From NCBI GenBank assembly GCA_017617635.1, contig JAFZVW010000007.1, forward strand, positions 1-62,114: DNA of 62,114 nucleotides. The letters run 5' to 3'. Position numbers and translations under genes: made by a program. The notes beneath the pieces were generated by a model, which made no database searches, had not been told where the DNA came from, and saw only the letters and a program-made list of their open reading frames with translations. Positions 50,902 through 52,837 of the stretch are shown piece by piece (the stretch's first letter is position 1; each line of letters starts with the position of its first letter). The stretch is from Bacteroidaceae bacterium. Its GTDB lineage: Bacteria; Bacteroidota; Bacteroidia; Bacteroidales; Bacteroidaceae.

Positions 50902-51195
50902 ATGTTAGACAGAACCCAAACCATAGAAAAGTTACGTTCCACACGCCAATATCTTGACGAGCACTATGGCGTACATTCCATGATGCTCTTTGGCTCTCTT
51001 GCCAAAGGCCAGCAGCATGAGGGCAGCGATGTCGATGTATGCGTTGAGATGGTGCCAAACCTGTTCAAACAAGCTGGCATAAAGGCCTATTTAGAAGAAC
51101 TACTCGGCTGCGACGTTGACGTAGTACGTATGAGGGAGTTCATGAATCCTGTCTTTAAACAACAAATTCAGAAGTATGGAATTCGAATCTACTGA
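50902..51195 (+). CDS. mntA: MNT-type nucleotidyltransferase antitoxin
   Basis: 97 residues. Nucleotidyltransferase motif GSLAKG (31-36) and SDVDVC (42-47) with both metal-binding Asp. In type VII pairs the enzyme adds AMP units to a Tyr of HepT and neutralises it. It overlaps the toxin gene by 20 bp, the usual arrangement. Confidence 0.9.
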   Translation: MLDRTQTIEKLRSTRQYLDEHYGVHSMMLFGSLAKGQQHEGSDVDVCVEMVPNLFKQAGIKAYLEELLGCDVDVVRMREFMNPVFKQQIQKYGIRIY

Positions 51196-51568
51196 ACAGA
51201 AGCAGATGGTCTGTGAGACCCTCAACAATATTCATCTTGCGATTACTCGGTTAGATAATCGCTCTATGAACGTCCACAGTGTTGATGATTATCTCACATC
51301 TCCATCAGGTATGGAGAAACTTGATGCTGCATGCATGGTGCTAATTGCCATTGGAGAAAGTGTAAAGACATTGGACAAGCTGACTGAGAAAAAACTGCTT
51401 CCCACTTATCCGTCTATAGACTGGAAAGGTGTTATGGGGGTAAGAGACATCATTGCTCACCACTATTTCGAAGTTGATCCTGATGCGGTCTTTGGCATCA
51501 TCAAAAATGACTTGACGCCTCTAAAACAAGCTATTGAATATTTCAAAAATCAGTTGGATATAAAATAG
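51176..51568 (+). CDS. hepT: HEPN toxin HepT (DUF86)
   Basis: 130 residues, all helical. RDIIAHHY at 90-97 gives the RX4HXY signature: Arg90 and His95 for RNase activity, Tyr97 as the site AMPylated by MntA. HEPN toxins cut RNA when not controlled. The pair forms a short operon that ends at a terminator. Confidence 0.9.
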   Translation: MEFESTEQKQMVCETLNNIHLAITRLDNRSMNVHSVDDYLTSPSGMEKLDAACMVLIAIGESVKTLDKLTEKKLLPTYPSIDWKGVMGVRDIIAHHYFEVDPDAVFGIIKNDLTPLKQAIEYFKNQLDIK

Positions 51569-51625: not shown

Positions 51626-51816
51626 CTATATGGCGCTTTTATCTCAGCTGACGCTCAACTTTTCATCAAACTTACCACGCTCAGTTGTTCAATCGGGTGC
51701 AGGCCCAGTTACCTAATCAGTAAAATACAGTTGTTATATTAAGCCTTTTAGACTTAGTAGGGAACTCTAAAACCCTTGATTTTCTTATCTTCAGTAAAAT
51801 CTTTTTCGCCAAAAAC

Positions 51817-51847
51817 TTGCGTTATATATAATAAGTATGTATATTTG
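51817..51847 (+). promoter_or_regulatory. Promoter of the structured RNA
   Basis: TTG (51817-51819) and TATATTTG (51840-51847), 20 bp apart, a perfect Bacteroidetes pattern. Start of transcription expected near 51853. Confidence 0.75.
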
Positions 51848-51852
51848 TGTCG

Positions 51853-52192
51853 TCTTCACGCCGGAAGTGGTGTAAAAACCACTGGGCATGCCATCAGGAA
51901 AGAGTTCCTTTTTGGCGGTGTGGGACACCAAATATTTAAAAAGGCGTATATTACGCGCTTTGTTCTTGACGATCTGAAAGCCTAGGAAACTCTCAAATTA
52001 CTATCAAGGAACTCAGCAACGATAGGCGCCCATGGGTATGTAAATATCGTACCTCTTGCTCATGCGTTTTATGAGCAAGATTTGACGTTTACATATTTGC
52101 GTGGGGTCATAGTTGCTCGTTTCGATAGTAATGGGCAATCCTAGGGCCTCAGATCGTGGAGCGAGCAACGGACAGGTCTCCACGCTTTTTTT
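51853..52192 (+). ncRNA. Highly structured non-coding RNA of about 340 nt
   Basis: The 800-bp gap after hepT holds no convincing gene but a dense RNA fold between a promoter and a terminator. Local hairpins near the 5' end: AGTGGT...ACCACT, AGGAA...TTCCT, GGTGT...ACACC, GCGTA...TACGC. Long-range stems: GCCTAGGA (51980-51987) with TCCTAGG(G)C (52139-52147), ATTACTATC (51997-52005) with GATAGTAAT (52124-52132), and AGCAAC (52015-52020) with GTTGCT (52112-52117). Inside is a long arm: TATGTAAA (52037-52044) with TTTACATA, topped by a 10-bp TCTTGCTCAT/ATGAGCAAGA hairpin. It lacks the signature sequences of tmRNA, RNase P RNA or SRP RNA that I know. A 69-codon frame (51776-51985) crosses it but starts before the promoter and is rejected. 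Confidence 0.75.
52155..52192 (+). terminator. Terminator of the structured RNA
   Basis: CGTGGAG...CTCCACG stem with TTTTTTT. Its 16-nt loop carries CGAGCAAC (52162-52169), which is fully complementary to GTTGCTCG (52112-52119) in the RNA body, so loop pairing could form a pseudoknot or alternative fold. Confidence 0.85.
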
Positions 52193-52375
52193 GTATCTTG
52201 GGGTTAATGTAAATCATCAATTATTCAGGGGCACTATTTGGAGACGTAGTGCAAAAGAGAAAACTATGTCCAATTAAATAATGTCATTTTCGTATCCGCT
52301 AAGGTTTCATCAGGGTTTGAATTTTAGCGGGCACCGATTTACAAACAATCTATTAACCTTTTAATTAAATTCATT

Positions 52376-52837
52376 ATGAAAAAACAATTGTTTATGGCAG
52401 CCGTTGCTGCATTGTGTCTTGCTTCATGTACAACAACCACCAAGACTGCCCGTACCGAGGTTATGCCTTATGGCATGTACAACGCATCTGTTGCTGATCT
52501 GGATGTTTCTCCTGACCGAGTTGTTTACACTATAACACCATCCAAGGAACTGAATCGTGCCGGTGAGACAAACTGCAAGCGTGCCGCTGTACAGGAGTGC
52601 CTGAGCAAATATGGCAATGCAGACCTTCTGGTTGAGCCAATGTTTGTTGTCAGCGTGAAGAAGGGCTGGTTTGGCAAGAAGGTTACCAGCGTAACAGTAT
52701 CCGGTCGTCCTGCAAAGTATAAGAATTTCCGTTCATTGCCTGATGGAGTCTGGACAGATCCTGTATTCCGTGGTGCAAAGAACGTTAGTTACAAATTCAT
52801 TAACGGCAAGCCTGTTGACGGATGCCCCAAGAAGTAA
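52376..52837 (+). CDS. Lipoprotein, unknown
   Basis: 153 residues, lipobox LCLASC (Cys18). The rest is a small mixed domain with CKRAAVQECLSKYGNADLLVEP, which looks like a conserved periplasmic lipoprotein fold, and KKGWFGKKVTSVTV. The AT-rich 180 bp before it contain a CCGCTAA...TTAGCGG dyad but no clear promoter. It probably shares a transcript with the barrel protein 31 bp further. Confidence 0.75.
   Translation: MKKQLFMAAVAALCLASCTTTTKTARTEVMPYGMYNASVADLDVSPDRVVYTITPSKELNRAGETNCKRAAVQECLSKYGNADLLVEPMFVVSVKKGWFGKKVTSVTVSGRPAKYKNFRSLPDGVWTDPVFRGAKNVSYKFINGKPVDGCPKK

What the first reader, a model, noticed from the sequence alone, without database searches (positions are those of the whole stretch)
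51853..52192. Large structured RNA of unknown family with switch-like pairing
Three nested long-range stems (8, 9 and 6 bp), an arm with perfect 8- and 10-bp helices, several 5' hairpins, a perfect promoter and a strong terminator mark an independent RNA gene. GTTGCTCG (52112-52119) can pair either with AGCAAC (52015-52020) or with CGAGCAAC in the terminator loop (52162-52169), and CTATC (52001-52005) can pair with GATAG locally or with the distant copy. This is a hint of a pseudoknot or of two folds. The size and complexity are those of large bacterial RNAs with special roles.
Basis: seen in the sequence. Interest (0 to 1): 0.8.

Follow-up and report, generated by a model that had tools for sequence, protein, structure and literature searches.

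The report
Shape-shifting RNA leader before accessory genes
In front of many different optional genes in Bacteroides-type gut bacteria sits the same intricate stretch of RNA, which looks built to switch between shapes and so decide whether the gene behind it is read; it matches no catalogued RNA family that was searched.

Summary
In detail: 51853-52192 is a highly structured RNA (z -8.6) with a Bacteroidota promoter, a U-tract terminator and real alternative pairings. It does not look like a free-standing RNA gene. Homologues are multi-copy and dispersed: 107 of 151 genomes of the family, up to 18 copies. The next gene is on the same strand in 101 of the 107 loci that have one, while the upstream gene is random (60:47); in 63 loci measured it starts a median 68 nt after the U-tract, without a promoter between. 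Covariation supports helices A and C and loop-loop helix B, and a hairpin beyond the terminator whose loop complements the terminator's 3' strand, so the unit reaches about 52252. A distant second type keeps the anatomy; there the only stem found next to the U-tract is E3:T3', and E3 can pair instead with upstream E5. Best reading: a cis-acting transcription-attenuation leader of a family absent from Rfam 15, before very diverse accessory genes (BREX, restriction, BspA adhesins, lipoproteins). Shown: conservation, position, exchangeable strands. Inferred: attenuation and its polarity. Unknown: the signal. No RNA data were available.

The parts
51840..51847 (+). Promoter -7 box TATATTTG (Bacteroidota TAnnTTTG)
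   Evidence: homology of full-length copies begins at 51798-51840; TAnnTTTG present upstream in 101 of 113 homologues, 16.4 in shuffles
51855..51863 (+). P1 5' strand, near the 5' end of the RNA
   Evidence: P1 helix score >=17 in 31 of 75 elements, 11.2 when partners are swapped
51916..51924 (+). P1 3' strand (CGGTGTGGG)
51943..51956 (+). Conserved small hairpin GGCGT..ACGC
   Evidence: Alignment A1
51969..51977 (+). A5, 5' strand of covarying long-range helix A (partner 52149-52157)
   Evidence: 98.7% of cells paired, 6 of 7 pairs with changes on both sides; 91 of 98 vs 15 swapped
51981..51987 (+). B5, within a GAA..TTC-type element, pairs with B3 52139-52145 (loop-loop helix)
   Evidence: 94 of 98 vs 29 swapped (score >=17)
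51997..52005 (+). C5, 5' strand of covarying helix C (partner 52124-52132)
   Evidence: 91 of 98 vs 9 swapped
52015..52020 (+). S2 (AGCAAC): upstream partner of S3
   Evidence: 96.6% of cells paired, but nearly invariant; no covariation (88 vs 90 swapped at >=14)
52026..52034 (+). E5 (GCGCCCATG): upstream partner of E3
   Evidence: helix 3: 91.8% of cells; 47 of 85 vs 34.6 swapped at >=14, 7 vs 10 at >=17; type II E5 GCTCACGC pairs E3 in 33 of 35, 9.8 shuffled
52035..52095 (+). F helix (52035-52041/52088-52095) and variable arm 52054-52080
   Evidence: F >=17 in 20 of 85 vs 7.2 swapped; arm differs in sequence and length between copies
52099..52106 (+). E3 (GCGTGGGG): exchange strand, pairs E5 upstream or T3' downstream
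   Evidence: RNAalifold consensus pairs it with T3'; 106 of 110 elements, 20 with shuffled partner
52112..52123 (+). S3 (GTTGCTCGTTTC): exchange strand, pairs S2 upstream or S4 downstream
   Evidence: (S3:S4 in 97 of 98 at >=14; 96 swapped, so conserved rather than covarying)
52133..52148 (+). K3 hairpin GGGC[..B3..]GCC presenting B3 (52139-52145) in its loop
   Evidence: four K3 pairs kept in 44-45 of 45 sequences; B3:B5
52155..52161 (+). T5, 5' strand of the local terminator hairpin (type I only)
   Evidence: score >=12 in 87 of 104 type I vs 38 shuffled; type II 2 of 35 vs 2.7 shuffled
52158..52169 (+). S4 (GGAGCGAGCAAC), terminator loop strand, pairs S3
52176..52185 (+). T3' (GTCTCCACGC), the strand before the U-tract with three possible partners: T5, E3, X loop
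52186..52192 (+). U-tract of the terminator
   Evidence: U-tract in 94 of 98 type I and 34 of 35 type II
52231..52252 (+). X hairpin GCACTA-TTTGGAGACG-TAGTGC; its loop TGGAGAC (52239-52245) complements GTCTCCA of T3'
   Evidence: loop:T3' score >=16 in 72 of 104 elements vs 22 swapped vs 8 shuffled
52376..52837 (+). Downstream same-strand gene, predicted lipoprotein of 153 aa; no Pfam match at 0.01

Best explanation
A cis-acting transcription-attenuation leader. RNA polymerase starts at TATATTTG and makes a long leader. A 5' core of helices A and C and a loop-loop helix B holds the RNA together. Two central strands, E3 and S3, can pair either with upstream strands (E5, S2) or with downstream strands (T3', S4). 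T3' lies directly before the U-tract, so pairing of T3' makes a terminator stem and stops transcription before the gene; E5:E3 and S2:S3 would hold E3 and S3 away from it. In this type I copy an additional local hairpin, T5:T3', can also terminate, and S3:S4 covers part of T5. After read-through the X hairpin near the gene pairs with T3' and would keep it from re-forming the stem. Some signal that changes the core sets the balance and thereby switches the downstream accessory gene. Shown by sequence comparison: structure, same-strand position, lack of a second promoter, exchangeable strands. Inferred: actual termination and read-through, which state is on, and the existence of a signal.
For: Same-strand gene downstream 101 vs 6, upstream gene 60 vs 47; second type 30 vs 3 and 17 vs 14. 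Start codon a median 68 nt after the U-tract, quartiles 54 and 82; exact promoter motif in between in 1 of 63 (shuffle mean 2.3), but upstream of the RNA in 101 of 113 (16.4). Covariation: A 91 of 98 vs 15 swapped, B 94 vs 29, C 91 vs 9; helix A 6 of 7 pairs changed on both sides. E3 region complementary to the 12 nt before the U-tract in 106 of 110 elements, 20 with shuffled partner, without selecting on either strand. X loop:T3' 72 of 104 vs 22 swapped. Type II lacks T5:T3' (2 of 35, chance 2.7) yet keeps the U-tract (34 of 35) and E3:T3' and E5:E3 (34 and 33 of 35). Window energies: local terminator -10.2, E3:T3' -14.8, S3:S4 -19.0 kcal/mol.
Against: No transcript data. In type I both E3:T3' and T5:T3' abut the U-tract, so it is not clear which fold lets polymerase through. 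The exchange helices are conserved rather than covarying: with partners swapped S3:S4 97 vs 96, S3 against the upstream part 88 vs 90, E3:T3' 96 vs 94 at score 14 (59 vs 40 at 17), E5:E3 47 vs 34.6 at 14 but 7 vs 10 at 17; in type II E3:T3' 34 vs 33.4 and E5:E3 33 vs 32.2. The proposed S1:S2 pairing failed (15 vs 30 swapped at 17). With one mismatch allowed, promoter-like motifs lie between U-tract and gene in 30 of 63, 26 expected. The window's gene starts 184 nt after the U-tract, further than usual, with a tiny ORF at 52266-52277 between. The nearest homologue of that gene (87% identical) has no such RNA in the fetched stretch in front. Downstream genes share no pathway, so no ligand is suggested.
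Confidence: 0.7

Rival explanations
1. A free-standing, multi-copy trans-acting small RNA (about 340 nt) whose genes happen to sit in front of accessory genes.
For: Own promoter and terminator; multi-copy like the FopS sRNAs of Bacteroides (PMC11697453, passages read). A terminated leader would also accumulate as a stable RNA.
Against: 101:6 orientation bias at a narrow distance without second promoter, covariation across the terminator into the X hairpin.
Confidence: 0.12
2. A leader that acts on translation or mRNA stability (protein-binding 5' UTR), with the U-tract hairpin of minor importance.
For: The X hairpin lies shortly before the start codon and pairs with T3', which makes sense only after read-through. 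L181, L182 and L186 lack a clear U-tract.
Against: U-tract kept in 94 of 98 type I and 34 of 35 type II.
Confidence: 0.12
3. A mobile or recombination element (DNA hairpins) that carries an outward promoter and lands before genes.
For: Dispersed copies; gene homologues with and without it.
Against: Compensatory changes together with many G-U pairs fit RNA; no match to one member in 72,556 plasmid or 50,697 phage records and only 2 viral contigs; conserved distance to the gene.
Confidence: 0.05

Closest known systems
Terminator-based riboswitches and attenuators (T-box, SAM, GEMM and others; recalled)
   Same: 5' position, terminator before the gene, strands that exchange partners
   Different: No Rfam match; leader of about 400 nt with a loop-loop helix and a post-terminator hairpin; downstream genes without common pathway
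FopS paralogous sRNAs of Bacteroides (PMC11697453, passages read)
   Same: Multi-copy RNA family of Bacteroidaceae
   Different: 65-70 nt trans-acting sRNAs; 9 intergenic, 4 antisense and 1 3'-UTR-derived; here about 340 nt to the U-tract and in front of a same-strand gene
Flavo-1 (RF01705) and other Bacteroidota motifs of Weinberg 2010 (PMC2864571, passages read; Flavo-1 hits also in PMC9723704, passages read)
   Same: Bacteroidota, structured, widespread
   Different: No covariance-model hit on the element in the members scanned
DUF805 RNA (RF03081)
   Same: Rfam type Cis-reg; one copy lies just downstream of a type II element (L208 704-773)
   Different: A separate, unlike 68-nt model; not the element itself
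HMP2 candidate structured RNAs (PMC8040213, passages read)
   Same: Search for structured RNAs in gut metagenomes; Bacteroidetes candidates of about 100 nt, one near radical SAM genes
   Different: Supplementary alignments could not be read, so overlap with part of this RNA is neither shown nor excluded

Membership tests
Any Rfam 15 family (6S, Bacteroidales-1, OLE, GOLLD, Flavo-1 and others) | Covariance-model score at the gathering threshold, or a low E-value | tested here: not met
   Window: 2 tRNAs only, two noise hits below gathering score. Homologue loci: none on the element (12 loci, 1, 3, 19)
Transcription attenuator (functional kind) | Same-strand leader position before a gene | tested here: met
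   101:6, 30:3
Transcription attenuator (functional kind) | Promoter upstream of the leader, none between terminator and gene | tested here: met
   Exact motif upstream 101 of 113, between 1 of 63; one-mismatch motifs between at about chance level, 30 vs 26
Transcription attenuator (functional kind) | Terminator stem and mutually exclusive competitor | tested here: met
   E3:T3' versus E5:E3 in both types; sequence level only, with little covariation in these two helices
Transcription attenuator (functional kind) | Regulated termination in vivo or in vitro | not testable with these tools
   No transcript data
Metabolite riboswitch | Downstream genes that share a pathway with a ligand | tested here: not met
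   39 of 96 downstream proteins scanned, chosen by eye: adhesins, BREX, restriction, regulators, 10 without Pfam match
Metabolite riboswitch | Ligand binding | not testable with these tools
   Needs in-line probing
FopS-like trans-acting sRNA | 65-70 nt, position not tied to a downstream gene | tested here: not met
   Size and position against PMC11697453

The most novel reading that the evidence does not exclude
A class of RNA switches spread over the phylum Bacteroidota that serves as a common on/off gate for the accessory genome (phage defence, restriction, adhesins, surface lipoproteins, regulators), each copy carrying its own sensor core and reading one shared but unknown cellular signal, so that many unrelated genes form one hidden regulon per cell.
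Probability: 0.35. Interest if true: 0.92.

Novelty: new variant of a known kind. Interest (0 to 1): 0.78.

Why it matters
If the reading is right, a good part of the accessory gene content of gut Bacteroidales, including BREX and restriction operons and BspA-type adhesins, sits behind one RNA device that Rfam 15 does not contain. It would be among the larger leader RNAs, with a loop-loop helix and a hairpin that reaches past its own terminator, and it would turn the question of how these bacteria decide which optional genes to express into something testable with a reporter.

Tried and rejected
Free-standing sRNA: disfavoured by orientation, distance and missing second promoter. S1:S2 pairing (51962-51970 with 52005-52021), at first part of my switch model: rejected, the observed fit is worse than with swapped partners. 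Antiterminator of the window's MFE (GGTGTGGGAC with the terminator 3' strand): set aside by inspection because that 5' strand covaries with the RNA's 5' end instead (P1); not tested on its own. My first polarity (E3:T3' as antiterminator, note) was dropped after type II showed E3:T3' as the only stem found next to the U-tract there. I first took the type II hits in L181, L182 and L186 to lie on the strand opposite to the lipoprotein gene; two searches showed the same strand, with an HTH gene between, and the text was mended. FopS identity: rejected by size and position. Plasmid and phage carriage: no match for one member, L104. Structure prediction of proteins was not used.

Limits of the counts. 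ORF calling was mechanical (longest ORFs of at least 90 aa, 60 aa). One search used 63 of 119 loci for spacing. The 104 elements and the 98 (6 of 104 dropped for short upstream sequence) were extracted with patterns that required GTGGG in E3 and C.C before the U-tract; one search repeats the E3:T3' test without that (110 of 119; 9 lacked upstream sequence or a T-run). In one search, 85 of 98 passed a position filter. A1 holds 34 of the 37 extractable sequences (L040, L021, L028 left out by eye as near duplicates; L014 too short). A2 holds 41 of the 43 references drawn from 85, plus four; L066 and L124 were left out by hand without a test. One search used 35 of 36 listed hits; one was skipped for lack of a pattern match; the hits came from a model that contains E3:T3' pairs, so its E3:T3' count is not independent; its S2:S3 test also catches helix C and is not relied on. 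The first orientation count for type II (16:1) missed reverse-strand loci and is replaced. Only 39 of 96 downstream proteins were scanned with Pfam, chosen by eye, plus the window's and seven others, and 10 with PADLOC, chosen because they looked defence-related, so no enrichment is claimed.

Full report
OBSERVATION. The 340-nt stretch folds with -136.1 kcal/mol against -91.6 +/- 5.2 for shuffles (z -8.58, 0 of 100). A Bacteroidota -7 box TATATTTG lies at 51840-51847, and a hairpin with seven T ends at 52192. Rfam 15 gives nothing at the gathering score except two tRNAs elsewhere in the window, and only two noise hits up to E = 5 for the region.

IT IS A DISPERSED FAMILY. A DNA search found matches in 39 of 101 genomes of the genus, with four matches in the window's own genome. 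Similarity of full-length copies starts between 51798 and 51840; in more distant copies it covers about 51920-52200, ending at the U-tract, while the nearest copies run on to about 52280-52303. With covariance model R1 (3' domain), 107 of 151 genomes of the family and 22 of 25 genera have matches, up to 18 per genome and 7 in the window's genome; in the order 41 of 197 genomes; in the phylum sample 2 of 296, own genome included. No match was found to one member in plasmid or phage records; two viral contigs carry the pattern.

IT IS A LEADER. For the 119 loci the nearest downstream ORF is on the same strand in 101, opposite in 6, absent in 12; the nearest upstream ORF is 60 to 47, absent in 12. 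Where the terminator was recognised and a same-strand gene began within 250 nt (63 loci), the start codon lies a median 68 nt after the U-tract (quartiles 54, 82). An exact TAnnTTTG lies between in 1 of 63 (shuffle mean 2.3), with one mismatch allowed in 30 (26 expected), but exactly upstream of the RNA in 101 of 113 (shuffle mean 16.4). In the window the gene starts 184 nt after the U-tract, with a three-codon ORF at 52266-52277 between.

STRUCTURE. On 34 homologues helix A pairs in 98.7% of cells, 6 of 7 pairs with changes on both sides; for A and S3:S4 counted together 0 of 500 shuffles reach the covariation score or the percentage paired, 12 of 500 reach the number of pairs changed on both sides and 40 of 500 the number of pair types. 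On 98 elements I compared each helix with partners swapped between elements: A 91 vs 15, B 94 vs 29, C 91 vs 9 at score 17 or more; P1 31 vs 11.2 of 75, F 20 vs 7.2 of 85. B joins two loops: B3 sits in the loop of GGGC..GCC (pairs kept in 44-45 of 45), B5 between GAA and TTC. S3:S4 (97 vs 96 swapped at 14), S3 against the upstream part (88 vs 90) and E5:E3 (47 vs 34.6 at 14, 7 vs 10 at 17) are conserved but give little or no covariation in type I. S1:S2, which I had proposed, failed the test.

ALTERNATIVE PAIRINGS AT THE TERMINATOR. RNAalifold on 45 sequences of the 3' domain pairs E3 (GCGTGGGG) with T3' (CTCCACGC) and S3 with S4, not the local terminator. Without selecting on either strand, the E3 region complements the 12 nt before the U-tract at score 14 or more in 106 of 110 elements, against 20 with shuffled partner; a local partner (T5) reaches that score in 75, against 20. 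With partners swapped between elements E3:T3' falls from 59 to 40 of 98 at score 17 and T5:T3' from 70 to 46.7 at score 14, so both show some covariation. In the window the local hairpin is worth -10.2, E3:T3' -14.8 and S3:S4 -19.0 kcal/mol.

THE X HAIRPIN. Between U-tract and start codon lies a further hairpin with variable stem and a loop complementary to T3'. Score 16 or more in 72 of 104 elements, 22 when T3' is swapped between elements, 8 with shuffled sequence. Compensated examples in that call: L074 GACACCC/GGGTGTC, L083 GACCCGC/GCGGGTC, L126 CAGTTGCC/GGCGGCTG, L067 AAAATCCC/GGGATTTT. In the window it is 52231-52252. RNA beyond the terminator thus belongs to the same unit, which argues for read-through transcripts.

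A SECOND TYPE. Weak hits at order level led to a divergent type with the same order of parts. Model R2 finds it, or type I, in 68 of 197 genomes of the order (54 of 147 genera) and 22 of 296 of the phylum sample (10 of 140 genera; own genome and one of the same family included). In 35 unique members: downstream gene same strand 30, opposite 3; upstream 17 to 14; at score 16 A 30 vs 4.2, B 34 vs 5.4, C 32 vs 6.6 with swapped partners; at score 14 E3:T3' 34 and E5:E3 33 of 35 against 6.0 and 9.8 shuffled but 33.4 and 32.2 swapped; S3:S4 29 vs 18.8 swapped vs 13.4 shuffled at score 12; post-terminator region against T3' 18 vs 8.6 swapped vs 2.8 shuffled at score 16; a TAnnTTTG upstream in 26 of 35. 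Here E5 (GCTCACGC) and T3' (CCCACGC) are near copies of each other and both fit E3 (GCGTGGGC). A local T5:T3' hairpin is absent (2 of 35, chance 2.7), while 34 of 35 keep the U-tract. So in this type the stem before the U-tract is most simply E3:T3', and E5:E3 is its competitor. No Rfam hit falls on the elements scanned.

GENES BEHIND IT. Of 39 downstream proteins scanned (of 96, chosen by eye), 10 have no Pfam match at 0.01. The others include four BspA-type LRR proteins (L071, L078, L123, L144), Big_2 proteins, outer-membrane barrels, a T9SS-tail protein, LytTR and HTH_18 regulators, a NusG-like protein (L117), UvrD and HerA ATPases, a dynamin-like GTPase and methyltransferases. PADLOC models give BrxP for L140 (4.4e-258), BrxA for L163 (3.7e-41) and a type IIG restriction enzyme for L165 (2.3e-129); 2 of the 10 proteins scanned there have no match. 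By a crude rule 45 of 96 downstream proteins have a signal-like N-terminus, against 26 of 107 upstream ones. The window's gene product has no Pfam match. Homologues of it were found in 12 other genomes of 121 searched. In three of them (loci L181, L182, L186) a type II element lies upstream on the same strand, followed by a small HTH gene (L182: HTH_3) and then the lipoprotein gene or genes; in the fetched stretches of the other nine no element was found. The closest homologue (L179) aligns with the window only from 52374 onward. So leader and gene come together repeatedly and also part.

MECHANISM. I read this as a transcription attenuator with strand exchange: E3 and S3 either stay with E5 and S2, or pair with T3' and S4 next to the U-tract. 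For type II the likely polarity is that E3:T3' terminates and E5:E3 permits read-through. For type I, T5:T3' can terminate as well, and S3:S4 overlaps T5, so more than two states are possible and I do not claim which is on. The X loop can take T3' after read-through. What sets the balance is unknown; the diversity of genes speaks against a biosynthetic metabolite and for a general signal or a trans factor, which is inference.

LITERATURE. No listed title or abstract opening names such a family. I read passages, not whole texts, of PMC11697453 (FopS), PMC8040213 (HMP2 candidates), PMC7366714 (B. thetaiotaomicron map), PMC9723704 (F. psychrophilum) and PMC2864571 (Weinberg 2010). Supplementary alignments could not be read, so fragments may be listed there under other names.

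Noticed in passing
window 50902-51568: Two adjacent small genes upstream match NTP_transf_2 (3.3e-14) and HepT-like (2e-17) in Pfam, the make-up of an MNT-HEPN toxin-antitoxin pair.
   Followed up: partly
L181, L182, L186, L213: Elements of the second type precede small HTH genes; L182 and L213 match HTH_3, and in L181, L182 and L186 relatives of the window's lipoprotein gene follow. A possible partner protein. The gene behind L067 looks similar but has no Pfam match.
   Followed up: partly
L219 1718-2485 and L222 799-1401: In two distant genomes of the same class the first gene behind the element matches sigma-70 regions 2 and 4.
   Followed up: partly
L208 704-773: A DUF805 RNA (RF03081, 54.7 bits) lies just downstream of a type II element.
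   Followed up: no
L060 1254-1290: An abiF RNA (RF03085) lies near a type I element in Prevotella ihumii.
   Followed up: no
L036 and L069, downstream genes: The leader precedes a small Cys-containing lipopeptide-like gene; in L036 a gene that looks like a radical SAM enzyme follows (labels recalled). PMC8040213 mentions a 108-nt Bacteroidetes RNA near radical SAM domains; identity not testable here.
   Followed up: no
L178 (window copy), L181, L182, L229, L238: The 3' domain also scores weakly on its own reverse strand: it is partly palindromic at the DNA level, so strand calls rest on the much higher forward score.
   Followed up: partly
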